A stretch of DNA of 64,000 nucleotides from Janibacter corallicola NBRC 107790. Lineage in GTDB: Bacteria > Actinomycetota > Actinomycetes > Actinomycetales > Dermatophilaceae. Location: the NCBI RefSeq assembly GCF_001570965.1, contig NZ_BCSR01000001.1:1-64000 (forward strand). The letters run 5' to 3'. The translations under genes and the position numbers were made by a program. The notes under the pieces are model-generated. The model did no database searches and was not told the origin of the DNA. It was given only the letters and a program-made list of their open reading frames with translations. Each line of letters starts with the position of its first letter. The stretch's first letter is position 1. This document shows positions 44,961 to 62,481 of the stretch, in pieces.

Positions 44961-46046
44961 ATGCGACATCAGGGATCGATGTGTGCCCGATTGGCCGTGC
45001 TGGGGATGGTGACATCCGGCTTGGTGCTGGGTGGTGGGCCGGCTCGGGCGGCGCAGGAGCCGAAGGTGCCGATCCTCGGGCAGGGACTCAGCAGCTCGGA
45101 CACCGCGACGAAGACCGACGTCAGCAAGGGGCTGGTCACGCTGCACGGCGTCCGGCGTGCCGAAGGGGCGACCGTCGTCTACTGGTCGTTGGGGTGGACT
45201 CCCGACACCACCGACAGCGAAAATGCCTCCTTGGTGGGGACCTGGGGGTACAACGCGGGCTTGGCGTGGCACAGCGAAGTCCACCAGCTGGGCGACGTGG
45301 CGGTCATCGACTCTCGGGCGATGAAGGCCTACACCCCGATCATCGGCCCGGACGACACGTGCAAGTGCAGTGACTCGTCGTACGCGCTCCCCGCTGACCC
45401 CAAGCCGGGCAAGGCCTACGTGATGCACGCGGTGCTCCCAGAGCTGCCCGAGGGCATTGACGAGGCGACGGTCAAGGTCGCCGGCAAGGTCTTCACCGAC
45501 GTGCCCGTCGAGGACGGGCTCATGACCCCCGCCAAGCCCAAGGACGAACCGATCCTCGTCGGGAAGGGCTGGCCCAAGGTCAACCCGGCAGGCATCGACA
45601 AGGTCAAGAACCTCGAGAAGTTCATCTACCCGGTCTCCAAGAACTCGCAGATCCTCGACTCCGCCGTCGCCACCCGCGAGGAGGGTGCCCAGACCCAGAT
45701 CGACATCGCCGCCGACGTCCTCTTCAACGTCGACAAGGCCACCCTCACCGGCAAGGCGAAGAAGGAGATCAAGACCGCAGCCGACCAGATCCGCAAGGCC
45801 AAACCCCAGGGAAAGGTCACCGTCACCGGCCACACCGACTCCGACGGGGCCAAGGACTACAACCAGGACCTGTCCGAGCGCCGCGCCGAGTCCGTCGCCA
45901 AGGAGATCAAGCCCCTCCTGCCGAAGGGAGTCACGGTCACCACCGAGGGCAAGGGCGAGAGCGAGCCCATCGCCTCCAACGAGACCGATTCAGGCAAGGC
46001 CAAGAACCGCCGCGTGACCATCACCGTCCCCGGAGGCGAGCAGTGA
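44961..46046 (+). CDS. Exported OmpA-family protein 1
   Basis: This 361-aa protein has a signal peptide to about residue 30 (ending GGPARA-AQEP), a roughly 210-residue N-terminal domain I do not recognise and an OmpA/MotB domain from about 245 (IDIAADVLFNVDKATLTGKA, TVTGHTDSDGAKDYNQDLSE, KAKNRRVTITV). A CKC motif lies at residues 134-136. It is paralogous over its whole length to the gene at 51909. It probably binds peptidoglycan outside the membrane. Its stop overlaps the lipoprotein start (GTGA). No ribosome-binding site is visible; see the promoter. Confidence 0.88.
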   Translation: MRHQGSMCARLAVLGMVTSGLVLGGGPARAAQEPKVPILGQGLSSSDTATKTDVSKGLVTLHGVRRAEGATVVYWSLGWTPDTTDSENASLVGTWGYNAGLAWHSEVHQLGDVAVIDSRAMKAYTPIIGPDDTCKCSDSSYALPADPKPGKAYVMHAVLPELPEGIDEATVKVAGKVFTDVPVEDGLMTPAKPKDEPILVGKGWPKVNPAGIDKVKNLEKFIYPVSKNSQILDSAVATREEGAQTQIDIAADVLFNVDKATLTGKAKKEIKTAADQIRKAKPQGKVTVTGHTDSDGAKDYNQDLSERRAESVAKEIKPLLPKGVTVTTEGKGESEPIASNETDSGKAKNRRVTITVPGGEQ

Positions 46047-46140
46047 CCCACACCATCACCCGCGCCACCCGCCTGACCGCCACCGCTGCCGCCGCCCTGC
46101 TGACCATCAGCGCCCTGACCGCCTGCAGCGACGACTCCCA
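45660..46140 (+). repeat. Duplicated segment, copy 1 (OmpA 3' end to lipoprotein 5' end)
   Basis: This segment is nearly identical to 52605-53095, for example across the shared stretches GAGATCAAGCCCCTCCTGCC and AAGAACCGCCGCGTGACCAT. Flanking parts of both genes have diverged much more, so this is either recent gene conversion or selection on the OmpA domain and signal peptide. Confidence 0.75.
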
Positions 46141-46645
46141 GGACCCACCGGCGAGCAGCCAGAGCTCCCAGGACGACAACGACAAGAGCAGCGACAAGGA
46201 CGAGGCCTCCGGCAAAGACGCCCCCGGCACCGACCAGTCAAAAGCCGTCTTCGACGCCTACACCCCGCCCAAGCCCGTCGGCTCCGCCACGAACAAGGAC
46301 GGCGTCACATTCGACGTCTTCGCCGTGAAGGACACCGACGGCCTCACCGACCTGACCTTCCAGGTCACGAGCCCGGAGAGCGCCTCCGTGGAACTGGCGG
46401 GCTGGGACTGGTCCCAGTACCCGACACTCGCAACCAAGGGCAGCCAGACCGCGCTGCAACCCCTGACCGTCAACCGCCTGTTCCGCAGCGACATCGAAAA
46501 AACCTGCATCTGCAGCGGACAGCTGCACATCTCACAGGCGCCGAAGGTCCAGCACGTCCTCTACGAACAGCTGCCCGATGACGTGGACGAGGTGAAGGTC
46601 CGGTACTCGGGCTTCGCCCCCATCACGGTCAAGGTCACCGACTGA
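46043..46645 (+). CDS. Lipoprotein paired with OmpA protein 1
   Basis: This 200-aa lipoprotein has the lipobox ISALTACSDDSQ, a Ser/Asp/Lys linker to about residue 65 and a beta-rich domain (TFDVFAVKDTDGLTDLTFQV) with a CIC motif at residues 155-157. The ending is LPDDVDEVKVRYSGFAPITV. The close paralogue is at 52988. It is coupled to OmpA protein 1, and both partners carry a CxC(S/T) motif, which hints at a shared metal or disulfide site. It is convergent with the lipoprotein/giant-pilin unit. Confidence 0.85.
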   Translation: MTHTITRATRLTATAAAALLTISALTACSDDSQDPPASSQSSQDDNDKSSDKDEASGKDAPGTDQSKAVFDAYTPPKPVGSATNKDGVTFDVFAVKDTDGLTDLTFQVTSPESASVELAGWDWSQYPTLATKGSQTALQPLTVNRLFRSDIEKTCICSGQLHISQAPKVQHVLYEQLPDDVDEVKVRYSGFAPITVKVTD

Positions 46646-46678
46646 CTCCTGCGCGAGTCATCCAGGACCAGCGGCACC

Positions 46679-47260
46679 TCACGACTCGTCCACCGGCTTG
46701 CCGTCCGTGTCGAGCACCACGTCCGAGTGCTCGTACTCCAGCGAGTCCTTCACGTGGGTGATCAGGTCATCATCCGCCTCCGTCCCGGAGACGGTCACGA
46801 TGACGGTGGTCGGGGGCTGACTTTGGCCCACGGCGATCCACGCCCCCGTGGCCGGCTTCCCTTCGTCCTTGTAGCTGAACTCCTGGAACAGAGCCGTATC
46901 GGCGCCCTCGACCTCGATGTCCTGGACCTTGCCCGGGGTGAAGCCCTCCATCTGCCTGTTCGCCGCGAACTGCATGTTGCCCAGCGCGGATGAGAGGATG
47001 CGGGAGTTGTCGTACGGGTCGGCGACCTGCACGCTGACCCCGTCATCTCTGACTGCCAGGTTCCACTTCTCGCTGGCGCCCTCACCCTCCGTGAAGCCTT
47101 GGGGCACCTCCAGCGTCAGCCGGTCTCCCTCAAGCCGCTTCCACCCGTCGCTCGGGGCATCCGAGCACGCCGACACCGCGCCGGCACTGACGAGGAAAGC
47201 GGCGAGCGCGGCGGCGGCCCGGACTCGGGGGGCTCGCATAGTCACATCTTCCTCACTCAC
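46679..47260 (-). CDS. Lipoprotein coupled to pilin-headed protein 1
   Basis: This 193-aa lipoprotein has the lipobox SAGAVSACSDAPS and a beta-rich domain with DRLTLEVPQGFTEGEG and EVEGADTALFQEFSYKDEG, ending LEYEHSDVVLDTDGKPVDES. It resembles the lipoproteins at 54009 (EVEGADTSMRGDFTYTDDG) and, more distantly, 49612. GTG 47260 overlaps the pilin-headed gene's stop (GTGA), as in the other module. The function is unknown; it is a likely surface partner of the protein encoded just before it. Confidence 0.83.
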   Translation of the reverse strand: MSEEDVTMRAPRVRAAAALAAFLVSAGAVSACSDAPSDGWKRLEGDRLTLEVPQGFTEGEGASEKWNLAVRDDGVSVQVADPYDNSRILSSALGNMQFAANRQMEGFTPGKVQDIEVEGADTALFQEFSYKDEGKPATGAWIAVGQSQPPTTVIVTVSGTEADDDLITHVKDSLEYEHSDVVLDTDGKPVDES

Positions 47261-48744
47261 GGTAGGCAGTCGGTGTCGGGGACCATCTCGCGGCTCCCCC
47301 CGGAGGGTGCCCCAAGATACGCGGCGTAGACGGCATCCGAGCTGCTGGAGGACCCCGAGAAGTCGAACCCCAGCTTGAGGCCCACCTTTACCTCGGCAGC
47401 CAGCCCCGCGGTGTCAGTCACCCCTTCCCGGGTGATCGCCGAGACGGTGGCGCGCTCGTACATCAGCTGACTGAACGGGTCCGAGCCCCTGTGGGCAGGG
47501 TTGACCGCCCCCATCGGGACAGTCCCTGGCCACTCGTAGCCGCTGCCGTCACCGCCCATCCAGTTCTGGACGACGTCCACATCCTCGTCGTAACCGGGAG
47601 CGTCCGGGTCGAGGGTGAGCTTGGTCTCCGTCACCGTGGCCGTGGTGTCCTGTGACGATGCGAAGACCGAGCCGGACCCGGAGTTCGCGTCGTCATCGGT
47701 GCCGTCCTTGGCCCCCGCATCGAGGCTGGTCCCGCCGTTGATCGCCCCCTTGCTCGTCGTGACGATGGCGACCTCGATGATGCGGCCCTGGGCGTCCTCG
47801 GTGATGGCCATACTCATCCCCTCCGTGTCACCCAGGCCCATGTCCCCGGACCAGATGTCCGAGGAGACACTCGGAGTGATCGACATGTCCACCGTGTAGG
47901 TCTTCGTGTCGTCCTCACCGGTCTCGGTCCCGTTCGTGTTCGTCGTCCTGACCCAGTGGGCGTCCGCAGCCACCGAGCCCGCGACGGCGTTCGCCTGCAG
48001 GTTGGACCCGGTCCCGTCGTCATTACCTGTCAGGTCGACCCCGAGCTGGCCCTGCCCTTCGCCGGCGACTCCGACGTCGACGGAGGTCGAGTCCGGAGGC
48101 GGCAGCGGGTCAAGGGGATCGATGACGTCTGCCACCAGTCCGCCGTGGCCAGGCATGCGGTAGGCGCGGTCGCGCATCCGGTGATCGCGCAGCAGGTCCT
48201 CGAAGTTCTCGGCGGCCTTGCGATTCTCGGCCGGGTCACCGTCATCGAACGTCCAGGTGTCGCCGGAGCCAAGGGTGACACCACCGCCGAAGTCGACGGA
48301 CCCCCCGAGCTCGACGCCTCCACCCGTCCGGAGCTCGGCCCCGGCACCTCCGGAAGCACCCAGCCCCGCCCCGTCGGTGGCCGTGAGGGTCACGCTGCCG
48401 TCGCTCATCTCCTTGCGCACCAAGCCCGCGTCCTCCCCGATGTCGATGAATCCGATCGAGACGGTCGAGTTGTAGCCTTCGCCCGACTGACTCACGGTGC
48501 AGGCTCCTGGTTGGAAGTCCGAGTCCTTCGGCGGGGCGGTGCGGTCCCCCTCGCCGCCCCCTGCACAACCGAGATCGGTGTCCAGGATCGTGCCGACGGC
48601 CCGGCACGTGGCGGCCCGAACGTCGGCCCCCCTGGGAGAGAGCGCCACGAAGACGGCACCCGCCACGAGGGCGGCGATGACGATGATGGCGACGTACTCG
48701 AGGCCCGACGCACCGCGCTCGGTGGTGTGCCCTCGCCCCTGCAT
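47257..48744 (-). CDS. Giant Flp-type pilin-headed protein 1
   Basis: This 495-aa protein has a first 35 residues that are a prepilin: leader MQGRGHTTERG, processing site G11-ASGLEY and one hydrophobic helix (VAIIVIAALVAGAVFVAL). A large extracellular region follows with CRAVGTILDTDLGC, PGACTVSQSG, IGFIDIGEDAGLVRKEMSDG, the block MSMAITEDAQGRIIEVAIV and an ending DTDCLP with a cysteine three residues from the end. Flp pilins are normally 50-80 aa. It is homologous along its length to the protein at 54542. The start is ATG 48744; the frame to 48888 is not used. Confidence 0.85.
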   Translation of the reverse strand: MQGRGHTTERGASGLEYVAIIVIAALVAGAVFVALSPRGADVRAATCRAVGTILDTDLGCAGGGEGDRTAPPKDSDFQPGACTVSQSGEGYNSTVSIGFIDIGEDAGLVRKEMSDGSVTLTATDGAGLGASGGAGAELRTGGGVELGGSVDFGGGVTLGSGDTWTFDDGDPAENRKAAENFEDLLRDHRMRDRAYRMPGHGGLVADVIDPLDPLPPPDSTSVDVGVAGEGQGQLGVDLTGNDDGTGSNLQANAVAGSVAADAHWVRTTNTNGTETGEDDTKTYTVDMSITPSVSSDIWSGDMGLGDTEGMSMAITEDAQGRIIEVAIVTTSKGAINGGTSLDAGAKDGTDDDANSGSGSVFASSQDTTATVTETKLTLDPDAPGYDEDVDVVQNWMGGDGSGYEWPGTVPMGAVNPAHRGSDPFSQLMYERATVSAITREGVTDTAGLAAEVKVGLKLGFDFSGSSSSSDAVYAAYLGAPSGGSREMVPDTDCLP

Positions 48745-48995
48745 GTGTCCCCTCCGAATCGCCCGCCGACGGTCGGCGATGTCTCGTCCGCACAGACTAC
48801 GAAAGGAGGCCCCGAAAACCGAAGGGACCACGGGCCCTCCCCGGACCCAAGCCGGTGGGCCCACGGACCCACCGGGGAGGCGCGACATGAGCCGGACCTG
48901 GTTGCCTTCGTCCCACGAGGCACGTGAGCGCCGCGCAATCGGTGACCACCGGTGACGCCCTCCAGGACGGCAACGTCACCGGTCGACCTGCAGAA

Positions 48996-49403
48996 TTAAC
49001 GCAGCCGCTGAGTCTCGTCGCGTGCCGGTCTAGCGCGCAGCCACCGGATGACGAAGACCATCACGCCTGCGGCGACGAGGGTGCCGAGCATCTGGGGGAT
49101 CGCGCGCGACCAATCCTCGGGGATGTCCGAGTACAAGAGCAGCGACACCACGAAAGCCACGACCGAGGCCGACACAGTCGACGGGGCGAACCAGCCACTG
49201 GCCGCGCCGATCGCGGCCCCGATGAGGGAGTAGCCGACGATGAACTGGGTCGTCAGGGTGGACGTGTCTTCGATGGCCAGGATCACGGACACGACGGCGA
49301 ACAACGTGATCAAGCCCGCGACGATGGCCGCCACGAGTGCCACCGCCACTCTCACGACGCCCCCTTCCTCATCCGCCGGCTTTTCGTCCTCGTCCACCTG
49401 CAC
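48996..49403 (-). CDS. Small four-helix membrane protein with a lipoprotein-derived N-terminal tail
   Basis: This 135-aa protein has four hydrophobic helices (VALVAAIVAGLITLFAVVSV, SLIGAAIGAASGWFAP, VSASVVAFVVSLLL, LVAAGVMVFVIRWL). The start is GTG 49403. The hydrophilic N-terminus and the codons just upstream read EYEHSEVQVDEDEKPADEE in the same frame, strikingly like the end of the lipoprotein at 46679. It seems to be the membrane-protein member of a partly deleted third module. The corresponding gene in the intact module is 53614-54003. Confidence 0.7.
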   Translation of the reverse strand: MQVDEDEKPADEEGGVVRVAVALVAAIVAGLITLFAVVSVILAIEDTSTLTTQFIVGYSLIGAAIGAASGWFAPSTVSASVVAFVVSLLLYSDIPEDWSRAIPQMLGTLVAAGVMVFVIRWLRARPARDETQRLR

Positions 49404-49436
49404 CTCCGAGTGCTCGTACTCACGGCTTCCCCCACC

Positions 49437-49612
49437 TCACGGGGTGCACTTGTGTAGGGCCCATCGCTCAGGTACCGCCTGCCGGTGTTCCAAGATACTG
49501 GGGGAGACGACCGCTGCATCGCTGGCGGACCCGGAGTAGTCGAACTCGACCTTGAGAGGCGCCGCCATCTCGGCGCCGAGCGCTCCGCCGAGTCCCCTGA
49601 CGCGTCCTCGGT
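49437..49612 (-). pseudogene. Remnant of a third pilin-headed protein (C-terminus)
   Basis: On the minus strand this reads GLGGALGAEMAAPLKVEFDY, then SGSASDAAVVSPSILEHRQ, ending LHKCTP and stop at 49437. It aligns with the end of the 495-aa protein (GLAAEVKVGLKLGFDFSG ... TDCLP) and with nearby nucleotide identity at 47350. The penultimate-region cysteine is kept. No upstream coding part exists; the lipoprotein at 49612 ends right before it. It is probably left by a deletion between repeated modules. Confidence 0.72.
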
Positions 49613-50322
49613 CAGACTACTTTGAAGGTCGACATCACCTGGGCGAGCTTTTTCTTCTCGAGGGTCCCCTCGGGCGCGACGGCGAGGACATTGATGATGA
49701 GGTCGGGGTCAACCTGCACCATCAGTTGCCACGTCTCCTGAGTCCCGCCGTGGCCTCCACGAATCGGGCTCATCCACTGGACGAGCACCGCAGGTTTCTC
49801 CACACCCGGCCAGGTCAGCTGCGAGCGCACCGGCGGTTTCTCGTTCTCAACCGCCTTGCTCTCCACCAGCACCTGGGAAAGTGGCATGACACCGGCCGTT
49901 GGCTTGACGTCGCGCACCACCGCCACTCGGGCCGGGTCTGAGGCCTTCCCCGAGGCACCCGGGGCGTCGAAGAGGTACATCGTCGTCCCGTTGGAGGCCT
50001 TCTCCGTGTCCTCCCGGAAGGAACCGGGCACGCCGATGGTGAATCCCTCGCCCTCGACCGTGCGCCACCGCGTCGGTACGTCGGACGGTTCGAGGGAGGC
50101 GGTGGGAGTCTCCGTGGGGGTGAGCTCTCCATCGGCCGAGCCCCCACTCGGGCTTGCAGCGTCGCCGTCACCCGAGTCGCTTGACCCATCTGATTCACTC
50201 GAACCGCCCGAGGCGTCGGAGCCGGAACCGTCGGAGCAGCCCGTCACGACACCGGTGAGCGCCACGCCAGCCGCGGCGAGCACCGCCCGCCGGGGACGAT
50301 CGGTCACGTCGCTGAAGTCCAT
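49612..50322 (-). CDS. Lipoprotein of the pilin-module type
   Basis: This 236-aa lipoprotein has the lipobox GVALTGVVTGCSDGSG, a long Ser/Asp/Gly linker to about residue 75 and a domain with GEGFTIGVPGSFREDTEKAS, QLTWPGVEKPAVLVQWMSP and the end LAQVMSTFKVV. The fold type resembles LpqN-like lipoproteins. It is related in layout to those at 46679 and 54009 but is not coupled to an intact pilin gene; only the remnant follows. The start is ATG 50322, with weak ribosome binding. It lies 53 bp from the cca stop. Confidence 0.78.
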   Translation of the reverse strand: MDFSDVTDRPRRAVLAAAGVALTGVVTGCSDGSGSDASGGSSESDGSSDSGDGDAASPSGGSADGELTPTETPTASLEPSDVPTRWRTVEGEGFTIGVPGSFREDTEKASNGTTMYLFDAPGASGKASDPARVAVVRDVKPTAGVMPLSQVLVESKAVENEKPPVRSQLTWPGVEKPAVLVQWMSPIRGGHGGTQETWQLMVQVDPDLIINVLAVAPEGTLEKKKLAQVMSTFKVV

Positions 50323-50374
50323 ACGGTCAACCCTGCCATTTCTGCAGTGGGAGTGGCCGTTCACGTTGTCCTCC

Positions 50375-51832
50375 CTACTCGGCCTCGCCACCCCACCAGC
50401 TCCACAGCCGCTCCGCGGCTGCCTCCTTGCCGATCGGCCCCTCGTCGAGACGCACCTGCAGCAGGTACTTGTAGGCCCGGCCGAGCTGCGGACCCGGCTC
50501 GATCCCCAGGACCTCGCCGATCTCGTGCCCGTCGAGCTCCGGACGGACCCTGTCCATCTCCTCCTGCTCGGCCAGCACCTCGATCCGCTCCTCGAGGTCG
50601 TCATAGGCGCGCCGCAGCCGGGCGGCCTTGCGCTGGTTGCGGGTGGTGCAGTCCGCCCGGGTGAGCCGGTGCAGCCGCTGCAGCAGCGGGCCGGCGTCGG
50701 TGACGTAACGGCGCACCGCGGAGTCGGTCCACTGACCGTCGCCGTACCCGTGGAAGCGCAGGTGCAGCTCGACGAGGCGGGCGACGGACTTGGTCGTCTC
50801 CTTGTCGAAGCGCAGGGCCTTGAGGCGCTTGGCGGTCAGCTTCGCGCCCACGACGTCGTGGTGGTGGAAGGAGACACCGCCGCCGGCCTCGAAGCGCCGG
50901 GTGCGCGGCTTGCCGACGTCGTGCATGAGGGCCGCGAGCCGGAGAACCAGGTCCGGGCGCGGGACGGGGTGGTCCTCGGCCCCGGCCGGGCCCTCCAGGT
51001 CGATCGCCTGCTGCAGCACGGTCAGCGAGTGCTCGTAGACGTCCTTGTGCCGATGGTGCTCGTCGATCTCCAGCCGAAGGGCGGGCAGCTCCGGAAGCAT
51101 CCGCTCGGCCAGACCGGTGTCCACGAGCAGCCGCAGCCCGGCGACGGGGTCCTCGCCGAGCACGAGCTTGGTCAGCTCGTCCCGGATCCGCTCGGCCGAG
51201 ACGATCTCGAGGCTGTCGGCGGCAGCGGTCATCGCCTCGACCACCTCGGGCGAGGGCGTGAGCCCCAGCTGGGCGACGAAGCGGGCGGCCCGCATCATCC
51301 GCAGCGGGTCGTCGCTGAAGGAGACCTCGGGGGCCGAGGGGGTGCGCAGCCGCTTCGCGGCCAGATCCAGCAGGCCACCGTGGGGGTCGACGAGCTCGAG
51401 GTCGGGCAGACGCAGCGCCATCGCGTTGACCGTGAAGTCCCGCCGCACCAGGTCATCGTCGAGGTTGTCCCCGAAGGCGACGACCGGCTTGCGGGTGGTC
51501 CGGTCGTAGGCATCGGCCCGGTAGGTGGTGACCTCGACGATGTCGTCGCCCTTGCGGGCGCCGATGGTGCCGAACTCCCGGCCCATGTCCCAGGTCGCAT
51601 CGCCCCACTCGGCGAGGATCGCCTCGGTCTCCTCGGGGCGGGCGGAGGTCGTCAGGTCCAGGTCCCCACTCGTCCGCTCGAGGAAGGCGTCACGGACCGG
51701 CCCACCCACGAGGGCCAGCTCGTGGCCCCCCTTCGCGAAGGCCGTGCCGAGGTCGCCGAGCAGCGGGATCACCGGGGCCAGATGGGCCACCGCGCCACGG
51801 AGGATCTCGGGGGGCAGTGCAGGGGTGGACAT
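50375..51832 (-). CDS. cca: CCA tRNA nucleotidyltransferase
   Basis: This 485-aa enzyme adds or repairs the 3' CCA of tRNAs. The class II polymerase head has ELALVGGPVRDAFLERTSGD followed by LDLTT (catalytic Asp pair), the RRDFTVNAMAL block and DDPLRMMRAARF. An HD domain follows (LAALMHDVGKPRTR, FHHHDVVGAKL). The same type is PcnA (Rv3907c) in mycobacteria, also near the origin. The start is ATG 51832. It separates the two duplicated surface modules and has the only clear core function in that stretch. Confidence 0.95.
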   Translation of the reverse strand: MSTPALPPEILRGAVAHLAPVIPLLGDLGTAFAKGGHELALVGGPVRDAFLERTSGDLDLTTSARPEETEAILAEWGDATWDMGREFGTIGARKGDDIVEVTTYRADAYDRTTRKPVVAFGDNLDDDLVRRDFTVNAMALRLPDLELVDPHGGLLDLAAKRLRTPSAPEVSFSDDPLRMMRAARFVAQLGLTPSPEVVEAMTAAADSLEIVSAERIRDELTKLVLGEDPVAGLRLLVDTGLAERMLPELPALRLEIDEHHRHKDVYEHSLTVLQQAIDLEGPAGAEDHPVPRPDLVLRLAALMHDVGKPRTRRFEAGGGVSFHHHDVVGAKLTAKRLKALRFDKETTKSVARLVELHLRFHGYGDGQWTDSAVRRYVTDAGPLLQRLHRLTRADCTTRNQRKAARLRRAYDDLEERIEVLAEQEEMDRVRPELDGHEIGEVLGIEPGPQLGRAYKYLLQVRLDEGPIGKEAAAERLWSWWGGEAE

Positions 51833-51871
51833 GGGGACACAGAGTACGCGGCCGACCCACGCGGTCAGTTC

Positions 51872-51900
51872 CTGCGCTGCGAGGTCTGGATGTATATCGT
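51872..51900 (+). promoter_or_regulatory. Candidate leaderless promoter of OmpA-like gene 2
   Basis: CTGCGC and TATCGT are 17 bp apart, and the -10 ends 8 bp before the ATG at 51909, the same geometry as before OmpA-like gene 1. No ribosome-binding site. It lies in the 76-bp divergent gap from cca. Confidence 0.5.
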
Positions 51901-51908
51901 GTCGTGCC

Positions 51909-52991
51909 ATGCGACATCAGGGAACGACGATCGCACGACTTGCCGTGCTCACCGCCGTGACCGGCGGCCTCGTCCTCGGAGGAGGTCCGGCTCAGGCAGC
52001 GCCGGAGCCCGAGGTACCGATCCTCGGTCAGGGTGTGGGGCGCTCGAAGCTCGGTCCCGGGCCCGTCCTCGTATCCCTGCACGGAGTCCGCCGGGCCGGC
52101 GACGCCACCGTCGTCTACTGGTCCACCGGCTACGCCCCCGACGCCAGGACCGGGGACAACGTCGACATCACGACGTCTTTCGGGGGCGCAACGGTCGCCG
52201 CCTCCCGCGACAACCTCGACCCGACGGCCGACACCTCCGACGTGGCCGTCGTCGACATGAAGGGGCAGAAAGCCTACACCACGGTCTTCGGGCCGAAGGA
52301 CACCTGCCTCTGCAGCGACTCCTCCGCTGTCCTCCCCTACCAGCCCGAGGCGGGCAAGGCGTACGTGATGTACGCCGTGTTGCCCAAGCTGCCCGACAAC
52401 CTGAATACGGCGACAGTCAAGGTCGCGGGGAAGGTCTTCCCCCACGTCCCGATCGAGGACGGCGAGATGACGCCGGAGAAGCCCCGGAACGGGCCGACCC
52501 TCGTTGGGAAGGGCTGGCCCAAGGCCGACCCCGAGCGCGTCGACAAGGTCAAGAACGTCGAGAAGTTCATCTACCCCGTTTCGGAGAACTCCAAGATCCT
52601 CGACTCCGCTGTCGCGACCCGCGACGAAGGGGACCAGACCCAGATCGACATCGCCGCCGACGTCCTCTTCAAGTTCGACAAGGCCAGCCTGTCCAGCAAG
52701 GCCAAGAGCGAGATTAAGACCGCCGCCGTACAGATCCGCAAGGCAGAGGCCGAGGGCACCATCACGATCACCGGTCACACCGACTCCGACGGCGCCGATG
52801 GCTACAACCAGAAGCTGTCCGAGCGCCGTGCCGAGTCCGTCGCCAAGGAGATCAAGCCCCTCCTGCCGAAGGGAGTCGACGTCACCACCGAGGGCAAGGG
52901 CGAAAGCGAGCCCATCGCCTCCAACGACTCCGATGAGGGCAAGGCCAAGAACCGCCGCGTGACCATCACCGTCCCCGGAGGCAACAAGTGA
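51909..52991 (+). CDS. Exported OmpA-family protein 2
   Basis: This 360-aa paralogue of protein 1 has the same start MRHQG, signal peptide ending GGPAQA, an unrecognised N-terminal domain with CLC at residues 133-135, and a C-terminal OmpA domain (VLFKFDKASLSSKAKSEIKT, TITGHTDSDGADGYNQKLSE, KAKNRRVTITV). The last roughly 130 codons are nearly identical at DNA level to copy 1, whereas the first 200 residues have diverged. It is coupled to the next lipoprotein gene by a GTGA overlap. Confidence 0.88.
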   Translation: MRHQGTTIARLAVLTAVTGGLVLGGGPAQAAPEPEVPILGQGVGRSKLGPGPVLVSLHGVRRAGDATVVYWSTGYAPDARTGDNVDITTSFGGATVAASRDNLDPTADTSDVAVVDMKGQKAYTTVFGPKDTCLCSDSSAVLPYQPEAGKAYVMYAVLPKLPDNLNTATVKVAGKVFPHVPIEDGEMTPEKPRNGPTLVGKGWPKADPERVDKVKNVEKFIYPVSENSKILDSAVATRDEGDQTQIDIAADVLFKFDKASLSSKAKSEIKTAAVQIRKAEAEGTITITGHTDSDGADGYNQKLSERRAESVAKEIKPLLPKGVDVTTEGKGESEPIASNDSDEGKAKNRRVTITVPGGNK

Positions 52992-53095
52992 CCCCCACCC
53001 CCCGCGCCACCCGCCTCGCCGCCACGGCCGCCGCGGCACTACTGGCCATCGGTGGCCTGGCCGCCTGCACCGACGACTCGCAAGACCCACCGTCG
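52605..53095 (+). repeat. Duplicated segment, copy 2
   Basis: This is the partner of 45660-46140. Similarity begins in the OmpA domain and stops after the lipobox codons of the second lipoprotein gene. Confidence 0.75.
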
Positions 53096-53599
53096 AGTAA
53101 CCAGGACTCCGGCGACAGCTCCACGAACGACAGTCAAGACGACGCACCCGGAACCGACCAGTCCAAGGCTGTTTTCGACGCCTACAGCACGCCGAAGCCG
53201 CTCGCGTCCACCACGAACAAGGAAGGCATGACCTTCGACGTGCTCGAGGTGAAGGACACTCCCGACGGGACGCTGCTGAGCTTCCGGATGACGGACGACG
53301 ACATCACCCAGCTCGATCTGGCGGGGACGGAGTGGGCCAGCTACCCCGTACTCGCCGACAAGGACTCCGGGACGGCCTACCAGCCCATCACCCTCCAACA
53401 GACCGCCTTCGCGGGCGAGGATGAGCAACGCATCTGCCTCTGTACGGCCCGGGTGCTCGCCAGGGAGGACGCCATGCCCCAGTACGTCCTCTACGAGTCA
53501 CTCCCCGACGACCTGGACAAGGTCCAGGTCCGCTACGAGGCAACCAACTCCATCGTGGGTCGCGGGTTCGAGCCGGTCACGGTCAACGTGAGCCGCTGA
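52988..53599 (+). CDS. Lipoprotein paired with OmpA protein 2
   Basis: This 203-aa lipoprotein has the lipobox IGGLAACTDDSQ, a Ser/Asp linker, the shared block APGTDQSKAVFDAY, and a domain with GMTFDVLEVKDTPDG and a CLC motif at residues 150-152. It is paralogous to the lipoprotein at 46043. The first 40 codons match that copy closely at DNA level, and the rest has diverged. It is convergent with the membrane-protein end of the pilin module. Confidence 0.85.
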   Translation: MTPTPRATRLAATAAAALLAIGGLAACTDDSQDPPSSNQDSGDSSTNDSQDDAPGTDQSKAVFDAYSTPKPLASTTNKEGMTFDVLEVKDTPDGTLLSFRMTDDDITQLDLAGTEWASYPVLADKDSGTAYQPITLQQTAFAGEDEQRICLCTARVLAREDAMPQYVLYESLPDDLDKVQVRYEATNSIVGRGFEPVTVNVSR

Positions 53600-53613
53600 G
53601 GCGGCTCTAGGGC

Positions 53614-54003
53614 TCAGCGGAGCCGTCCGGCAGGGTCCCGTCGTGTCCGCGCGAGCACTCGTGATGATCCCAGGGCGAGGACTCCGTGCACCACGGTCAG
53701 CAGGATGGCCACCACCACCCAGCCAAGCACGACCTGCAGCACACGGCCTGAAGGAGTCGCGGGACTCATCCACAAGCCCACCACGACCGCAGTCAGCGCG
53801 GCCGAAGACCCAGCAGTGCCGAACCGCGTCAACGGCGTGTCGTGCGGTCGGGCACCGGCGGCGAACAGCCCAGCGACCACGGCGGCCGGCACCGACGAGA
53901 CGAGTGGGATGACCAAGAAGGTCCGTTGCACCAGGAGCATCACGATCACTCCCAGCACGACGGTGACGACAATGGTGCCCGTACGGCTGCGCAGTTGGGT
54001 CAT
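53614..54003 (-). CDS. Small four-helix membrane protein at the end of the Tad/pilin operon
   Basis: This 129-aa protein has four hydrophobic helices (TIVVTVVLGVIVMLLV, VPAAVVAGLFAAGA, SSAALTAVVVGLWM, VLGWVVVAILLTVVHGVLAL) and a basic C-terminus. The start is ATG 54003, five bases after the lipoprotein stop. It corresponds in position and topology to the protein at 48996, so the module is pilin-headed protein, lipoprotein, membrane protein. The function is unknown. Confidence 0.75.
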   Translation of the reverse strand: MTQLRSRTGTIVVTVVLGVIVMLLVQRTFLVIPLVSSVPAAVVAGLFAAGARPHDTPLTRFGTAGSSAALTAVVVGLWMSPATPSGRVLQVVLGWVVVAILLTVVHGVLALGSSRVLARTRRDPAGRLR

Positions 54004-54008
54004 CAAGG

Positions 54009-54545
54009 CTACTCGTTCGTGCTCTTCTCGAACTGCAGGCTCTCGATGATCGAGGTGACCGCGGCGGCGTCCAAGGACTTCCCGGTCAACGCGATCACAG
54101 CGGTGGACGGATCCGGCCATTGCCCAGCGATGACCCAGCACCCCTCCTTCGCCACTCCATCATCGGTGTAGGTGAAGTCGCCCCGCATGGATGTGTCGGC
54201 CCCCTCCACCTCAATGTCAGGCTGGTGCACACCCTGGCTCTGGTAGTCCTGTAGACCGAGCGTCGCCGGCAGGTCCAGCCGTCCGTAGGCGGCCGAGGCG
54301 GTCGGGTCGTCGCTGAACGTCCCCGAGATCTGCAGCTCGAGTCCATCACCGACAAACTTCTTGTCCCACTTGCCGCTGGCCTTCTTCTCCGTCCACCCCT
54401 TCGGGACGGTCACGGTCAGATGCCCCACCGTGACCTTCTGCCCGCTGCCGCCATCCGAGCAAGCAGTCAGCGCAAGGGCAGCGCTCGCCATGAGCAACCC
54501 CCTTCGTCCCAGCGCCTTACTCGATCCTCTCGACATCTGCATCAC
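54009..54545 (-). CDS. Lipoprotein coupled to pilin-headed protein 2
   Basis: This 178-aa lipoprotein has a Tat-like or basic start (GRRGLLMASAALALTACSDG, with lipobox). The domain has GHLTVTVPKGWTEKKASGKW and DIEVEGADTSMRGDFTYTDD, ending SIIESLQFEKS. It is related to the lipoprotein at 46679. GTG 54545 (or ATG 54542) overlaps the stop of the pilin-headed gene. Coupled translation suggests a stoichiometric complex with that protein. Confidence 0.83.
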   Translation of the reverse strand: MMQMSRGSSKALGRRGLLMASAALALTACSDGGSGQKVTVGHLTVTVPKGWTEKKASGKWDKKFVGDGLELQISGTFSDDPTASAAYGRLDLPATLGLQDYQSQGVHQPDIEVEGADTSMRGDFTYTDDGVAKEGCWVIAGQWPDPSTAVIALTGKSLDAAAVTSIIESLQFEKSTNE

Positions 54546-56008
54546 TCTACGCAGTCGGTGTAGTCCAGCACGGGCCGCGTGCCGTCGGGCCGCGGGGCTC
54601 CCAGATAGGTGGCCTCGGTGGCCGTGGTCTCCTCGGAGGCCATGCTGAAGTCCGCCCCGAGCGCCAGGCCGAACTTGACGTTGAGACCGAACTGCTGGGT
54701 GTCACTCACATGGTCGTAGGCAATGCTCGTGCTCGTCGCCTGCTCGTACAGCATCTGGCCGAAAGGGTCGTCCGGGGCGACGGTCGACGGGTCCAGCGCA
54801 TTCATCGGCAGGACGCCGGGCCATTCGTGGTTGCCATTCCCACCGAGCCAGTCGGTGACCGTCTTCTGCTCCTGCGCGTTCTCGGGGTCGACGGGCAGCG
54901 TCGTCTCCTCCACCACCATGTCGCCCTCGGTCGTGCCCGAACCGGCACTCCCGCCACCGGCCTTCTTCCCTTTGCCCTTGCCCTTGCTCGCTCCACCATC
55001 GGCACCGGCCCCGTCGCTGTCAGTCACCTCTGAAGTCGTGGTGATCTTGACCTCGGTGACACGGCCCTTGGCGTCCTTGGTGATCGACATCGACATGCCC
55101 TGGACCGATCCCGTACCGCCGGTCTTGAGACCAATCTGGCCGGTCAGCTCGGAGTTCAGCTGCAGGTCCGTGACATAAGTTCTCGTGTCATCCGACTCGT
55201 CATCGGCAGTTCCCTTGTTGTCGCTTGTCGTGACCCACTTGCCCGAGGGTTTGATCGAGGCAGCGACACCCTGCGTTGTCATCTCCGCCTCGGTCATCGG
55301 AGACTTACCGCCCGTGGCGGAGATCCCCAGGTCGCCGTTCACCTCACCGGTGACCTTTACGCCACTGAAGGTTGTCGAGGGGACAGGCGGGGGATCCGCA
55401 CCCGTCGTCGGCCTCGGCATGCAGATTCCACCGCCGCACGCCGGGTGCTTCATGGCCCACTGGTCGTAGAGATAGTCGTCCAGCTGCTCCCGGAACTGCT
55501 CGGCCTGATCGGCATCCTTGAAGGACCAAGTACTCCCATAATCGAACTCGACACCCCCACCGAAGTCCACACGAGCTCCCGCCGAGCCGGATCCCCATGA
55601 GGCGTCGGCCCCGAACCCGCCAGTGGCGCCCAGAGAACCACCATCCGTCGCGGTCATGGTGACGCTTCCATCGCTGTACTCGGTCACGACGAAGCCGGCG
55701 TTCTCACCAATCTCGATAAAGCCGATCTTGACGACCGAGCTCGTCTTCTCGCCCTTCTTGTGCACGGTGCACTTGTCAGGTTCGAAGTCTGCGTCATCGG
55801 GCGGCGCCGACCCGTCGTCCTTGGCTGCGCACCCCAAGTCCGTCTGCAGGATGGTCCCCACGGCCCGGCACACGGCCCCGCGTACGTCGTTACCCGCTGG
55901 GCTGATGGCCAAGAAGACGGCGCCGGCAATCATCGCGGCAATGATGATCATGCCGACGTACTCGGGCGCGCTGGCCCCACTTTCGGGCTTGCGCGAAGCA
56001 CCCTTCAC
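54542..56008 (-). CDS. Giant Flp-type pilin-headed protein 2
   Basis: This 488-aa protein has the leader MKGASRKPESG and processing site G11-ASAPEY, at exactly the same residue as in protein 1. The helix YVGMIIIAAMIAGAVFLAI and a large extracellular domain follow. It shares CRAVGTILQTDLGC, PDKCTVHKKG, IGFIEIGENAGFVVTEYSDG, GMSMSITKDAKGRVTEV and an ending YTDCVE, so four cysteines are conserved. It lies directly after the TadG-like gene in the Tad operon, which supports processing and export through that machinery. The start is GTG 56008. Confidence 0.86.
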   Translation of the reverse strand: MKGASRKPESGASAPEYVGMIIIAAMIAGAVFLAISPAGNDVRGAVCRAVGTILQTDLGCAAKDDGSAPPDDADFEPDKCTVHKKGEKTSSVVKIGFIEIGENAGFVVTEYSDGSVTMTATDGGSLGATGGFGADASWGSGSAGARVDFGGGVEFDYGSTWSFKDADQAEQFREQLDDYLYDQWAMKHPACGGGICMPRPTTGADPPPVPSTTFSGVKVTGEVNGDLGISATGGKSPMTEAEMTTQGVAASIKPSGKWVTTSDNKGTADDESDDTRTYVTDLQLNSELTGQIGLKTGGTGSVQGMSMSITKDAKGRVTEVKITTTSEVTDSDGAGADGGASKGKGKGKKAGGGSAGSGTTEGDMVVEETTLPVDPENAQEQKTVTDWLGGNGNHEWPGVLPMNALDPSTVAPDDPFGQMLYEQATSTSIAYDHVSDTQQFGLNVKFGLALGADFSMASEETTATEATYLGAPRPDGTRPVLDYTDCVE

Positions 56009-56035: not shown

Positions 56036-56707
56036 TCAGTCCACGAGAGAGGGCTCGTGGTCGCCGAGCGCGATGTCGCCGGCGTCGATCTTGATGTCAC
56101 CGTCGTCTCCCGGCCAGATCACCGGGATGTCGAGGTCACCGCACGCAACCTCGTCCTCCTCCGGTGGTTCCTTCGTCGGCGAGGGGGAGCGCTTCGAGGG
56201 TGACGGCTTCGTCGGAGAGGGCCTCGAAGTGGACGACGAGGGACTGGGCGTCGGAGGCTCCAACGGTTCGCAAGGGCCAAGGGCCACACCGAGTTGCGCC
56301 ACCGCCTGACGTTCCTCGTGCTCCCCCGACTCGAGGCGGTCATGGCTGCGCACCGTGACGTGGACCTCGTCATTGGCCGGGTAGTAGCAGTAGCTCACGA
56401 GGTTCGCGCCGTTCCGGTCGGCGAACTGGCTCGCCTTCTCCTGACCCAACCCACACGGGATCTCGCGTCCGTTCTTGATGGCGCTGACGATCTGACCGGG
56501 CGCCTCGTGCAGCACCGCCTGGGCACCGGCCAGTGCCGCCGCATCCGCACTCCGCTGCAGCTCACCGGCCTCATCGGTGGCCTTGCTCAGCCGGATACCG
56601 ACCGTCATGGCAAAGGCCAGCAACAGGACGGACACCAGGACGACCACTGCGGTCGCCACCTGTCCGGTCTCCCGATCGTCCCGCTCCATCTCCCACTCCC
56701 GACTCAT
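56036..56707 (-). CDS. TadG/TadE-like pilus assembly protein
   Basis: This 223-aa protein has an N-terminal helix (VATAVVVLVSVLLLAFAMTV) and the family block SADAAALAGAQAVLHEAPGQ. A beta domain with cysteines (YCYYPANDEVHV) follows, then a Ser/Pro/Thr-Lys tail with SPSSSTSRPSPTKPSPS and an acidic end. Rv3655-type TadG-like proteins have this architecture. The preceding residues (DRETGQVAT) lack the glutamate at position 5 of a strict prepilin site, so processing is uncertain. The start is ATG 56707, with 56689 as alternative. Confidence 0.82.
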   Translation of the reverse strand: MSREWEMERDDRETGQVATAVVVLVSVLLLAFAMTVGIRLSKATDEAGELQRSADAAALAGAQAVLHEAPGQIVSAIKNGREIPCGLGQEKASQFADRNGANLVSYCYYPANDEVHVTVRSHDRLESGEHEERQAVAQLGVALGPCEPLEPPTPSPSSSTSRPSPTKPSPSKRSPSPTKEPPEEDEVACGDLDIPVIWPGDDGDIKIDAGDIALGDHEPSLVD

Positions 56708-56771: not shown

Positions 56772-56990
56772 TCACTTGCCGCTGCCCGTGAGGATCTTGG
56801 AGATCGCGCTCGACACCTTCTCCCCGATCGCCTGGTCCTTGACCGCGGTCCACACGGCACCGACGATCAGGGCGGCGATCAGGATCATGCCGACGTACTC
56901 GAGGGCCGAGGCTCCACGGCTCCGGTCACCCATGCGCTCACCGAGCACGTGCATCGTGGTCGTGTACTTGGCTGCCATCCGTGCGGTCAT
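56772..56990 (-). CDS. flp: Flp-family major pilin
   Basis: This 72-aa prepilin has a hydrophilic leader, processing site G26-ASALEY and the hydrophobic helix VGMILIAALIVGAVWTAVKD, then a short tail ending ISKILTGSGK. It is the structural subunit of the Tad pilus. An AAGGAG spaced seven bases from ATG 56990 decides that start over ATG 56996. It lies between the response regulator and the TadG-like gene. Confidence 0.92.
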   Translation of the reverse strand: MTARMAAKYTTTMHVLGERMGDRSRGASALEYVGMILIAALIVGAVWTAVKDQAIGEKVSSAISKILTGSGK

Positions 56991-57117
56991 TGTCATGCTC
57001 CTTGCTTCTTGGTCTGTGGTCGCGACCCCTCCGGGCCCTTCCCCTGCTGACACCCATGAATTTACGGAACTCGAACGCACAGTCGCAGGGCCCGAAGGCC
57101 CATTCCCGGGCCCAAGT

Positions 57118-57798
57118 TCAGCGTGGGCCCCTGGGCCCACGCCTGTCCCGCCAGAGAACGATCGCCTCGGCCCGAGTGCTCGTTCCCAGCGCCGCGAAGA
57201 TCGCGTTGATGTGGTTCTTGACGGTCTTCTCGGCCACGAAGAGCTCCCCTGCGATCTGACCGTTGCTGCGGCCCGCAGCCACGAGATCCATCACCTCCAC
57301 CTGTCGGGCACTCAAGCCCGGAACATCGGCAGGTGACGTTGCTCCCTCCACGACAGGGGGTTGTGCCGGACTGGCCACACCGCCACCGCGCAGGGCCGAC
57401 AGCGCCGGCCCGCTGAAGGCGCCGCCGCCGCCGACGCACTGCCGGATCATCGAGGCCAAGGTGTCCGCGTCGAAGGTTCCGTGGACGAGATATCCCGACG
57501 CTCCCTCACGGAGAGCCCCCTGGATCGTGGCCGGTTCGTCGCTGAAGGTCAGCATGATCACTGTGGCTCGACTGCTCAGCTCGGCCACGACGGACAGCCC
57601 ATCCCTTCCGGGCATGCGTACGTCCAGGAGGACGCAGTCGGCCCGGTGGGTTGCGACCGTGCAGAGAGCCTCGTCCGCGCTGCCTGCCTCGGCGACGACG
57701 CTCAGGTGCTCCTCCACGTCCAGGAGTGCCCGCAGGCCCGCTCGCACGATCGGGCTGTCGTCGACGATGACGACCCCGATCTCGTTCGTTCGACTCAT
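57118..57798 (-). CDS. NarL/LuxR-type response regulator
   Basis: This 226-aa regulator has a receiver domain (GVVIVDDSPIVRAGLRALLD, phosphorylated Asp in VLLDVRMPGRDG) and a C-terminal LuxR helix-turn-helix (LSARQVEVMDLVAAGRSNGQ, then VAEKTVKNHINAIF). The start ATG 57798 overlaps the kinase stop by four bases. Its place inside the Tad operon, just upstream of flp, suggests control of pilus genes. Confidence 0.93.
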   Translation of the reverse strand: MSRTNEIGVVIVDDSPIVRAGLRALLDVEEHLSVVAEAGSADEALCTVATHRADCVLLDVRMPGRDGLSVVAELSSRATVIMLTFSDEPATIQGALREGASGYLVHGTFDADTLASMIRQCVGGGGAFSGPALSALRGGGVASPAQPPVVEGATSPADVPGLSARQVEVMDLVAAGRSNGQIAGELFVAEKTVKNHINAIFAALGTSTRAEAIVLWRDRRGPRGPR

Positions 57799-58958: not shown

Positions 58959-58962
58959 TCCA

Positions 58963-62134: not shown

Positions 62135-62481
62135 CAACCCACCGCCGGCATCTCGGAGGTCCGGCTGACCTCGCCGATCTTCAGACCCGCGATGGAGGGC
62201 ACTTCGACTGTCACGGTGACCCGCCGCCCATCACCGGGTCGACTCGTACTCACCGAATCGACGTCCAGGATGCCGGGAAGGGCCCGGTCCGCGGCGGCGC
62301 CCGGGTCCTGACCCAGACTCGCGGCGCGGGCCGCGTCCCGAGCCGCCTGACCCGTCGCGGCCATGGCCCACCCGGCGACCCCGACCTGAAGGGCGATGAG
62401 CGCCGACAGGATGAGAATCGGTACCAGTGACGCCGTCTCCAGCGCTGCCGCTCCCCGCTCACTCCTGCGCTGCCTGCTCAC
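62134..62481 (-). CDS. TadE-like minor pseudopilin
   Basis: This 115-aa protein has leader SRQRRSERG with a prepilin site G10-AAALET, the helix ASLVPILILSALIALQVGVA and a short external beta domain (GRRVTVTVEVPSIAGLKIGE). TadE proteins are processed by the prepilin peptidase and join or prime the pilus. The start is GTG 62481, overlapping the CpaE-TadE stop (GTGA). Confidence 0.9.
   Translation of the reverse strand: MSRQRRSERGAAALETASLVPILILSALIALQVGVAGWAMAATGQAARDAARAASLGQDPGAAADRALPGILDVDSVSTSRPGDGRRVTVTVEVPSIAGLKIGEVSRTSEMPAVG

What the first reader, a model, noticed from the sequence alone, without database searches (positions are those of the whole stretch)
44961..56008. Duplicated surface module built on giant Flp-type pilins
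Two 488-495-aa proteins begin with a strict prepilin processing site (GxxxxEY with Gly at residue 11 in both) and a pilin helix, then carry a roughly 450-residue external domain with four conserved cysteines. Each is coupled by a GTGA overlap to a lipoprotein, with a small membrane protein after it in one intact copy and one decayed copy. Each intact copy faces an OmpA/lipoprotein pair. One copy is the tail of the Tad operon itself. Flp pilins are normally 50-80 aa, so these look like pilus-borne or membrane-anchored giant pilins with wall-binding partners.
Basis: partly seen in the sequence, partly recalled or inferred. Interest (0 to 1): 0.85.

Follow-up and report, generated by a model that had tools for sequence, protein, structure and literature searches.

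The report
Tad-pilin proteins carrying effector-like domains
Two very large pilin-like proteins in an actinobacterium belong to a wider set in which a pilus-subunit leader carries enzymes, toxins or, as here, an unknown domain with its own partner lipoprotein, which suggests that these pili may carry weapons or tools rather than only stick to surfaces.

Summary
The giant pilins are real. A (54542-56008, 488 aa) and B (47257-48744, 495 aa) have a GxxxxEY prepilin site with Gly11, a pilin helix and four cysteines; each is GTGA-coupled to a lipoprotein. A lies at the tail of a Tad gene run. The "decayed copy" was not confirmed.

The leader is a carrier. Of 113 leader-bearing ORFs examined, 66 initially lacked the A/B domain (27 genomes; 63 after a recheck); Pfam finds in them pretoxin-HINT plus toxins, SGNH hydrolases (one in this genome), NlpC/P60, Tox-REase-5, Colicin D and others. 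The A/B domain matches nothing in Pfam, NCBIfam or PDB sequences. Three examined relatives sit behind non-pilin N-termini, one beside an EssC/EccC-like ATPase, and lack the cysteines that 43 of 43 pilin-borne copies keep. Pilin-borne copies co-occur with one TadC clade (10 of 10 genomes in the family, 22 of 22 in the class sample). The partner lipoprotein has a PsbP/Mog1-type predicted fold, shared by LpqN, T6SS immunity proteins and Eag chaperones.

Best reading: a Tad-pilin-borne effector module with a cognate lipoprotein, probably immunity. Cleavage, assembly and toxicity are untested. Print holds a passing mention of Flp pilins with a toxin domain; my searches found no described system.

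The parts
54542..56008 (-). Giant Flp-type prepilin A, 488 aa: leader to Gly11, pilin helix, C47-C60 loop, ~410-aa ectodomain with C80 and C486 at its ends
47257..48744 (-). Giant Flp-type prepilin B, 495 aa, same layout; 43-46% identical to A
54009..54545 (-). Partner lipoprotein of A, GTGA overlap, PsbP/Mog1-type fold predicted
46679..47260 (-). Partner lipoprotein of B, GTGA overlap; 33% identical to the partner of A
53614..54003 (-). Small membrane-type protein (by eye) behind lipoprotein A; start uncertain
49612..50331 (-). Third, diverged lipoprotein without a giant pilin (orphan partner candidate); start uncertain; BLAST to lipoprotein B E 0.003-0.004 over 52 aa
48996..49403 (-). Small membrane-type protein behind the third lipoprotein; BLAST E 3e-5 to 3e-8 with the gene that follows the giant pilin-lipoprotein pair in congener G138 (L084)
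51909..52991 (+). Secreted-type protein with OmpA domain, facing copy A
52988..53599 (+). Lipoprotein GTGA-coupled to the OmpA protein (copy A side)
44961..46046 (+). Secreted-type protein with OmpA domain, facing copy B; 67% identical to the other
46043..46645 (+). Lipoprotein GTGA-coupled to the OmpA protein (copy B side); 47% identical to the other
56036..56698 (-). Tad/TadG-like protein (PF13400 above cut-off), directly upstream of A; start uncertain
56772..57002 (-). Short Flp-type pilin (46 residues after Gly); no Pfam family above cut-off; start uncertain
57118..58997 (-). Response regulator (57118-57798) and sensor kinase (57795-58997), named from sequence, inside the Tad run
   Evidence: similar genes beside Tad genes in many relatives
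58963..59871 (-). TadC (T2SSF; DUF5936)
59868..60791 (-). TadB (T2SSF)
60788..62137 (-). TadA/CpaF ATPase (T2SSE)
62134..62481 (-). TadE
62478..64000 (-). TadZ-like; runs on to contig position 64151; beyond the window follow CpaB, the SGNH pilin (67380-68474), its lipoprotein (68471-69250) and the leader peptidase (about 69302-70195)

Best explanation
A and B are modular Tad-type prepilins. Shown by sequence: a Flp-type leader and helix, a short C47-C60 loop, then a glycine-rich ectodomain with cysteines at both ends (C80, C486). Inferred: the Tad leader peptidase cuts after Gly11, the helix is taken up by the TadA/B/C machine of this Tad subtype as a minor pilin, and the ectodomain is shown at the cell surface or pilus tip, sealed by a C80-C486 disulphide. 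The ectodomain is best read as an effector-type module, because relatives of it occur behind non-pilin N-termini and because the same leader carries toxins, hydrolases and peptidases elsewhere. The overlapping lipoprotein gene encodes its cognate partner, most likely an immunity protein that guards the producer's own envelope, less likely an export chaperone. What the ectodomain does to a target is not shown; its lack of conserved catalytic-type residues fits a binding or pore-type action more than an enzyme.
For: Leader: same motif as the short Flp of the same run. Tad tie: 22 of 22 class-sample genomes with a pilin-borne domain lie in the 69 of 394 with the TadC clade (Fisher p 1e-18), and 10 of 10 within 11 of 149 in the family (p 1e-14) (genomes are related, so p is nominal); within 30 kb of that TadC in 16 of the 22, 42 kb in one, far in one, other contigs in four. 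Carrier: of 113 leader-bearing ORFs with at least 120 residues after Gly, 47 hold the A/B domain and 66 did not at the first cut; three of the 66 are distant A/B relatives on recheck. In the 66 (27 genomes) Pfam finds PT-HINT 21, NLPC_P60 8, GDSL 8, Tox-REase-5 5, Abhydrolase_8 3, Peptidase_C2 3, Toxin-deaminase 3, Colicin_D 2, Ntox24 2, and single M23, ADP-ribosyltransferase and bacterial RNase A matches. Module swap: G235 (L092) and G512 (L093) carry the domain (E 1e-23, 2e-20) behind another N-terminus; beside the one in L093 is a protein matching EssC at 2e-171, under the equivalog cut-off. Cysteines: 43 of 43 pilin-borne copies, 0 of the 3 examined copies with another N-terminus. Partner: a lipoprotein of this family downstream of 23 of 43 copies, 21 of them clear; in four loci compared, both close pilin pairs have close lipoproteins (59%/58%, 65%/52%) and all four crossed pairs are low in both (37-43%/29-34%). 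Partner fold: PsbP Z 13.8; LpqN 10.7; by entry titles also EagT6 10.1, TplEi 9.6, Tle4-Tli4 8.9, Tse3-Tsi3 8.4. A deaminase-bearing relative is followed by a SUKH-like gene (E 4.5e-5, 0.9 bit under the cut-off).
Against: The A/B domain matches no known toxin, family or PDB sequence, and its structure model failed (pLDDT 43.6). 20 of 43 copies have no such lipoprotein downstream; in two of these, L007 and L059, one lies upstream, others have small membrane-type genes instead. The lipoprotein profile was grown within these same loci, so its count is not blind. Co-variation of neighbours is also expected from common descent. The PsbP-like fold is widespread and shows no function; the best matches are photosystem PsbP. 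The WXG-like reading of the L092/L093 N-termini is mine; Pfam and NCBIfam did not recognise it, and the L092 ATPase was not scanned. Three genomes with weaker leaderless matches (G248, G327, G485) lie outside the TadC clade. A leaderless ORF in G036 (L086 4262), probably a broken pilin copy, keeps the C-terminal cysteine. NlpC/P60 pilins may be housekeeping for wall passage.
Confidence: 0.5

Rival explanations
1. A and B are adhesive or priming minor pilins at the tip of the Tad pilus (like PilB/PilC of Streptococcus sanguinis T4P or the TadG/KilN tip proteins); the lipoprotein helps fold, dock or retain them.
For: Modular pilins with adhesive modules are known (PMC8179133, passages); Tad tips with variable domains are known (PMC12075869, abstract and passages). 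A lies at the tail of the Tad run; the lipoprotein fold also resembles Eag chaperones, which by entry title bind effector N-termini. No conserved catalytic-type residues.
Against: Relatives of the domain occur behind non-pilin N-termini, one beside an EssC/EccC-like ATPase, which a pilus tip part would not need. Several copies in a row in some genomes: four in L075, two full plus a leaderless one in L086.
Confidence: 0.3
2. The prepilin leader only serves as a membrane anchor and export signal; A and B are membrane-tethered surface proteins never built into a filament.
For: Some leader-bearing ORFs lie far from Tad genes (G267 has 13 of the 66 other passengers, all on contigs other than that of its TadC). 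An ectodomain of this size would disturb a filament body.
Against: Association with one TadC clade, 22 of 22 and 10 of 10 genomes. The helix resembles the short Flp of the same run.
Confidence: 0.15
3. An ordinary large secreted protein family in which the leader match is a chance feature of GC-rich open frames.
For: GC-rich genomes give long spurious open frames; some long ORFs in the survey are short Flp pilins read from a far upstream start (L150, L159).
Against: Four-cysteine layout in 43 of 43, leader-profile matches, and Pfam domains in frame behind the leader.
Confidence: 0.03

Closest known systems
Kil system tip complexes of Myxococcus xanthus (Tad pilus; PMC12075869: outline, abstract and passages seen)
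   Same: A Tad pilus works with minor pilins that expose variable domains; used in contact-dependent killing.
   Different: Diderm predator with a T3SS*; tips are complexes of several minor pilins. Here actinobacteria, one pilin with a long grafted domain and a partner lipoprotein. No sequence comparison with Kil proteins was made.
Modular type IV pilins, e.g. PilB of Streptococcus sanguinis (PMC8179133: passages seen)
   Same: A pilin module with a large unrelated module grafted on; 264 architectures reported there.
   Different: That survey used the IPR012902 module; 'Flp' does not occur in that text. Here the module is Flp/Tad-type and many passengers are toxins or hydrolases.
Polymorphic toxin systems (Zhang et al. 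2012, PMC3482391: passages seen)
   Same: Shared N-terminal trafficking part, exchangeable C-terminal toxins, HINT domain, SUKH immunity.
   Different: 'pilin', 'pilus' and 'Flp' have 0 occurrences in the held 300,000 of 357,715 characters (4 'tad' hits not viewed one by one). The A/B domain is no Pfam toxin domain.
ARC toxin domain with Flp pilins (PMC12605009: one passage and legend seen)
   Same: A published, passing statement that a toxin domain occurs with 'Flp pilins'.
   Different: One phrase in a list; no Tad link, partner or survey in the passage seen.
Type VII secretion loci (EssC/EccC)
   Same: A relative of the A/B domain lies beside an EssC/EccC-like ATPase (L093; L092 looks alike).
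   Different: There without pilin leader and without the ectodomain cysteines.
PsbP/Mog1/LpqN-fold proteins, incl. T6SS immunity proteins and Eag chaperones (PDB titles)
   Same: Predicted fold of the partner lipoprotein.
   Different: Sequence identity 7-17% for the chains named; a shared fold does not show function.

Membership tests
Flp (Tad, type IVc) pilin | GxxxxE prepilin site followed by a hydrophobic helix | tested here: met
   477 and 484 residues after Gly
Flp (Tad, type IVc) pilin | Match to a Pfam Flp model | tested here: inconclusive
   No match for A or B, but none for the short pilin of the same run either
Flp (Tad, type IVc) pilin | Encoded with Tad machinery and an A24 leader peptidase | tested here: met
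   T2SSE, T2SSF x2, TadE, RcpC/CpaB, Tad, Peptidase_A24
Flp (Tad, type IVc) pilin | Leader cleavage and polymerisation | not testable with these tools
   needs experiment
Modular pilin | Pilin module plus a separable extra module | tested here: met
   Same leader on unrelated domains; same domain behind other N-termini
Modular pilin | Incorporation into the filament or tip | not testable with these tools
   needs experiment
Polymorphic toxin / effector system | One trafficking N-terminus with many exchangeable toxin C-termini | tested here: met
   For the leader family as a whole, not for A/B:
Polymorphic toxin / effector system | Effector domain shared between trafficking routes | tested here: inconclusive
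   A/B domain behind other N-termini in L092, L093, L054; EssC/EccC-like neighbour scanned in L093 only; the N-termini themselves not recognised by Pfam or NCBIfam
Polymorphic toxin / effector system | Adjacent cognate partner that co-varies | tested here: met
   Downstream of 23 of 43 copies, 21 clear; close and crossed pairs behave alike in four loci; common descent would give the same
Polymorphic toxin / effector system | A/B domain is a known toxin domain | tested here: not met
   No Pfam, NCBIfam or PDB-sequence match
Polymorphic toxin / effector system | Toxicity and neutralisation by the partner | not testable with these tools
   needs experiment
PsbP/Mog1-type fold (partner lipoprotein) | Structural match over most of the domain | tested here: met
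   Model pLDDT 75.2; Z 13.8, rmsd 2.8, 135 aligned to 2xb3, model residues 33-173
Kil tip minor pilins (KilL/M/N) | Sequence or structural relation | not tested
   no Kil sequence was compared

The most novel reading that the evidence does not exclude
Actinobacteria with one Tad subtype use Flp-type prepilins as a delivery or display route for polymorphic effectors: toxins, lipases, peptidoglycan hydrolases and the unknown A/B domain ride on the pilus, each with a partner placed where the effector would act (in the cases looked at: a cytosolic SUKH-like gene for a deaminase, lipoproteins for A/B and for the SGNH hydrolase). The A/B domain would be a new envelope-acting effector class shared by Tad and type VII routes.
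Probability: 0.42. Interest if true: 0.9.

Novelty: new variant of a known kind. Interest (0 to 1): 0.8.

Why it matters
Tad pili are mostly discussed as adhesion devices (my recollection of the field). A pilin leader that carries HINT-linked toxins, wall hydrolases and lipases would add a trafficking route for polymorphic toxins, link Tad pili of actinobacteria to contact-dependent antagonism as in Myxococcus, and give a ready list of effector-partner pairs to test. A domain shared between Tad and type VII loci would tie two secretion fields together.

Tried and rejected
Structure of A from 7 sequences gave pLDDT 43.6; no fold search was run on it. PDB sequence search with the A/B profile: 0 matches at E up to 10. 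PADLOC on the 66 passengers: three PDC-M17A models on 5 members and single weak hits, not followed. 'Wall-binding lipoprotein' was dropped after the fold match. 'Recent duplication' was dropped for A/B. The membrane proteins of A and of the third unit did not match each other convincingly. A count of all large leader ORFs against Tad (42 of 42) is not used, because some of those ORFs are short Flp pilins in long open frames (L150, L159). The 24 of 24 was split: G235 and G512 have only copies with another N-terminus, which leaves 22 pilin-borne. The family match of G128 falls on its short pilin; it has an SGNH pilin elsewhere (L087 5833) and no A/B domain. Duplicate loci L094 (= L005) and L081 (= L006), two copies each, were dropped before the counts of 43. 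Three of the 66 'other' passengers (L078 9278, L091 9830, L096 13775) are distant A/B relatives with filters off or a wider profile. Three further leaderless matches (G512 C177, G327, G485) were not examined. Of the 66 passengers 13 come from one genome, G267, and the loci were chosen for large ORFs, so frequencies are not population rates; the match list was capped. ORFs were called by my own scripts; starts are uncertain. Paper searches made. One search (pilin, polymorphic toxin, Tad, actinobacteria) gave 0 papers; (polymorphic toxin, prepilin) gave one, a Kil paper (listing only); one search gave PMC12605009. Preprints and most subscription journals are not held. PMC11217815 (passages) reports Tad genes beside T7SSg (Acetivibrio, Paenibacillus) and T7SSh loci and leaves the link open.

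Full report
WHAT IS THERE. The two proteins are as described. A (54542-56008, minus, 488 aa) and B (47257-48744, minus, 495 aa) have Gly at residue 11, the motif GASAPEY/GASGLEY and a long hydrophobic helix. Each overlaps a lipoprotein gene by GTGA. A, its lipoprotein and a small membrane-type gene end a same-strand run of Tad genes: Pfam finds T2SSE (TadA), T2SSF twice (TadB, TadC, the latter with DUF5936), TadE, RcpC/CpaB, the Tad/TadG-like model and, outside the window at about 69302-70195 of the contig, a Peptidase_A24 leader peptidase. A short Flp-type pilin with 46 residues after Gly lies in the same run; Pfam does not recognise it, so the lack of a Pfam Flp match for A and B says nothing. 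The OmpA/lipoprotein pairs face the modules as stated. The small membrane-type gene behind lipoprotein A is open; the other one (48996-49403) is open too, but stands behind a third lipoprotein (49612-50331), upstream of B, and resembles the gene that follows the pilin-lipoprotein pair in a congener. I read this as a partner pair without a pilin, not as a decayed copy.

THE DOMAIN. Pfam, NCBIfam and PDB sequences give no match. In 43 non-redundant pilin-borne relatives, Gly11 is invariant and Glu16 95% (partly by construction, as a leader profile helped to pick them). Every one has four cysteines in the same order: two 7-18 residues apart after the helix, a third 9-42 residues on (80 in L096), and one within the last 12 residues. 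Other conserved positions are mostly glycines, with S112-D113-G114; none looks like a catalytic set. The structure model was poor (pLDDT 43.6), so no fold is claimed.

THE LEADER IS A CARRIER. In the same genome, contig position 67380-68474 encodes the same kind of leader on an SGNH/GDSL hydrolase (PF13472, 1.8e-20), GTGA-coupled behind another lipoprotein. I built a profile of the first 60 residues (A3) and searched 394 class genomes: 232 have a match at E 0.01 or better, short Flp pilins included. In the regions fetched, 142 ORFs match, 113 with at least 120 residues after Gly; 47 carry the A/B domain and 66 did not at the first cut; three of the 66 are distant A/B relatives on recheck. In the 66, from 27 genomes, Pfam finds PT-HINT in 21, NLPC_P60 in 8, GDSL in 8, Tox-REase-5 in 5, Abhydrolase_8, Peptidase_C2 and Toxin-deaminase in 3 each, Colicin_D and Ntox24 in 2 each, and single M23, ADP-ribosyltransferase and bacterial RNase A matches. 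One deaminase case has a SUKH-like gene about 10 nt behind it (E 4.5e-5, just under the cut-off). A/B-type copies lie within about 4 kb of HINT-bearing leader proteins in L061, L066 and L070.

THE DOMAIN MOVES. In G235 (L092) and G512 (L093) the A/B-type domain (E 1e-23 and 2e-20) follows a helical N-terminus that I read as WXG-like, although Pfam and NCBIfam do not call it so. The neighbour in L093 matches EssC at 2e-171 and EccCa at 1e-129, under the equivalog cut-offs, and FtsK_SpoIIIE at 3e-58; the neighbour in L092 looks alike but was not scanned. A WXG100-like 82-aa gene in L092 is weak (E 0.03). L054 (G248, E 5.5e-7) is a third case, without a type VII neighbour in the stretch held. None of the three has a cysteine in the domain. 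This is what one expects if the cysteines form a disulphide in Sec-exported, pilin-borne copies only. A leaderless ORF in G036 keeps the C-terminal cysteine, but looks like a broken pilin copy.

TIE TO TAD. TadC of the window finds 11 of 149 family genomes at 53% identity or more; they include all 10 with full-length A/B relatives. The eleventh, G128, has a short pilin and an SGNH pilin. Two more genomes with TadC at 45-46% (G018, G070) have no match. In the class sample there is a gap in TadC E-values between 3e-42 and 2.8e-30; 69 of 394 lie above it and hold all 24 genomes with an A/B match at E 1e-9 or better, of which 22 are pilin-borne. Three genomes with weaker, leaderless matches (G248, G327, G485) lie outside that clade. 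Of the 22, 16 have the domain within 30 kb of that TadC, one at 42 kb (G376), one far away (G278), four on other contigs. Relatedness makes the p-values nominal.

THE PARTNER. A profile of the lipoprotein, grown over four rounds in the fetched loci, finds it downstream of 23 of 43 copies; two of the 23 (behind L069 7915 and L086 7687) are the lipoprotein that goes with an SGNH pilin, so 21 are clear. In L007 and L059 one lies upstream. In four loci compared, the two close pilin pairs have close lipoproteins and the four crossed pairs are low in both. The model (pLDDT 75.2) matches PsbP (Z 13.8, rmsd 2.8, 135 aligned), LpqN (10.7) and, by entry titles, chains of EagT6-Tse6 (10.1), TplEi (9.6), Tle4-Tli4 (8.9) and Tse3-Tsi3 (8.4) complexes. 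The fold is shared by immunity proteins and by chaperones, so it supports both partner readings and proves neither.

READING. The most economical account is a Tad-pilin-borne effector module with a cognate envelope partner. Shown: leader, domain conservation, carrier nature, presence behind other N-termini, Tad tie, neighbour co-variation. Inferred: cleavage, assembly, disulphide, effector action, immunity. The chief rival is a tip adhesin or priming pilin; it explains the Tad tie but not the copies without leader. In print, modular pilins, Tad tips and polymorphic toxins are known, and one phrase mentions Flp pilins with a toxin domain. My searches (listed in Tried and rejected) found no paper that describes the system.

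Noticed in passing
contig C1 67380-68474 and 68471-69250 (L028 7381-9251), just outside the window: Flp-type leader fused to an SGNH/GDSL hydrolase, GTGA-coupled to a lipoprotein with a sub-threshold PknH_C match; a similar lipoprotein hit lies beside an SGNH pilin in L069, L084, L086 and L087.
   Followed up: partly
L127-L137, L060, L089 (genome G267): One genome holds at least 13 leader-bearing passengers without the A/B domain, plus two A/B copies, on many contigs: an expanded repertoire.
   Followed up: partly
L073 8000, L074 6376, L076 15375, L078 11999, L091 8818: Leader fused to NlpC/P60-type hydrolases near Tad genes (L073 tested; the rest by likeness); possibly tools for passing the pilus through the wall.
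   Followed up: partly
window 44961-46645 and 51909-53599; L065, L073, L074, L078, L091: OmpA-domain proteins recur beside actinobacterial Tad genes; their N-terminal part and the coupled lipoprotein look related by eye.
   Followed up: no
window 57118-58997: A response regulator and sensor kinase sit in the Tad run between TadC and the short pilin, and similar genes recur beside Tad genes in many relatives.
   Followed up: no
L086 4262 (G036): An ORF with the A/B domain but no recognisable leader next to two full copies; probably a broken copy.
   Followed up: no
L092 9337-11058, L093 5040-6773, L054 1015-2364: A/B-type domain behind non-pilin helical N-termini, in L093 beside an EssC/EccC-like ATPase: a possible unnamed type VII effector domain.
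   Followed up: partly
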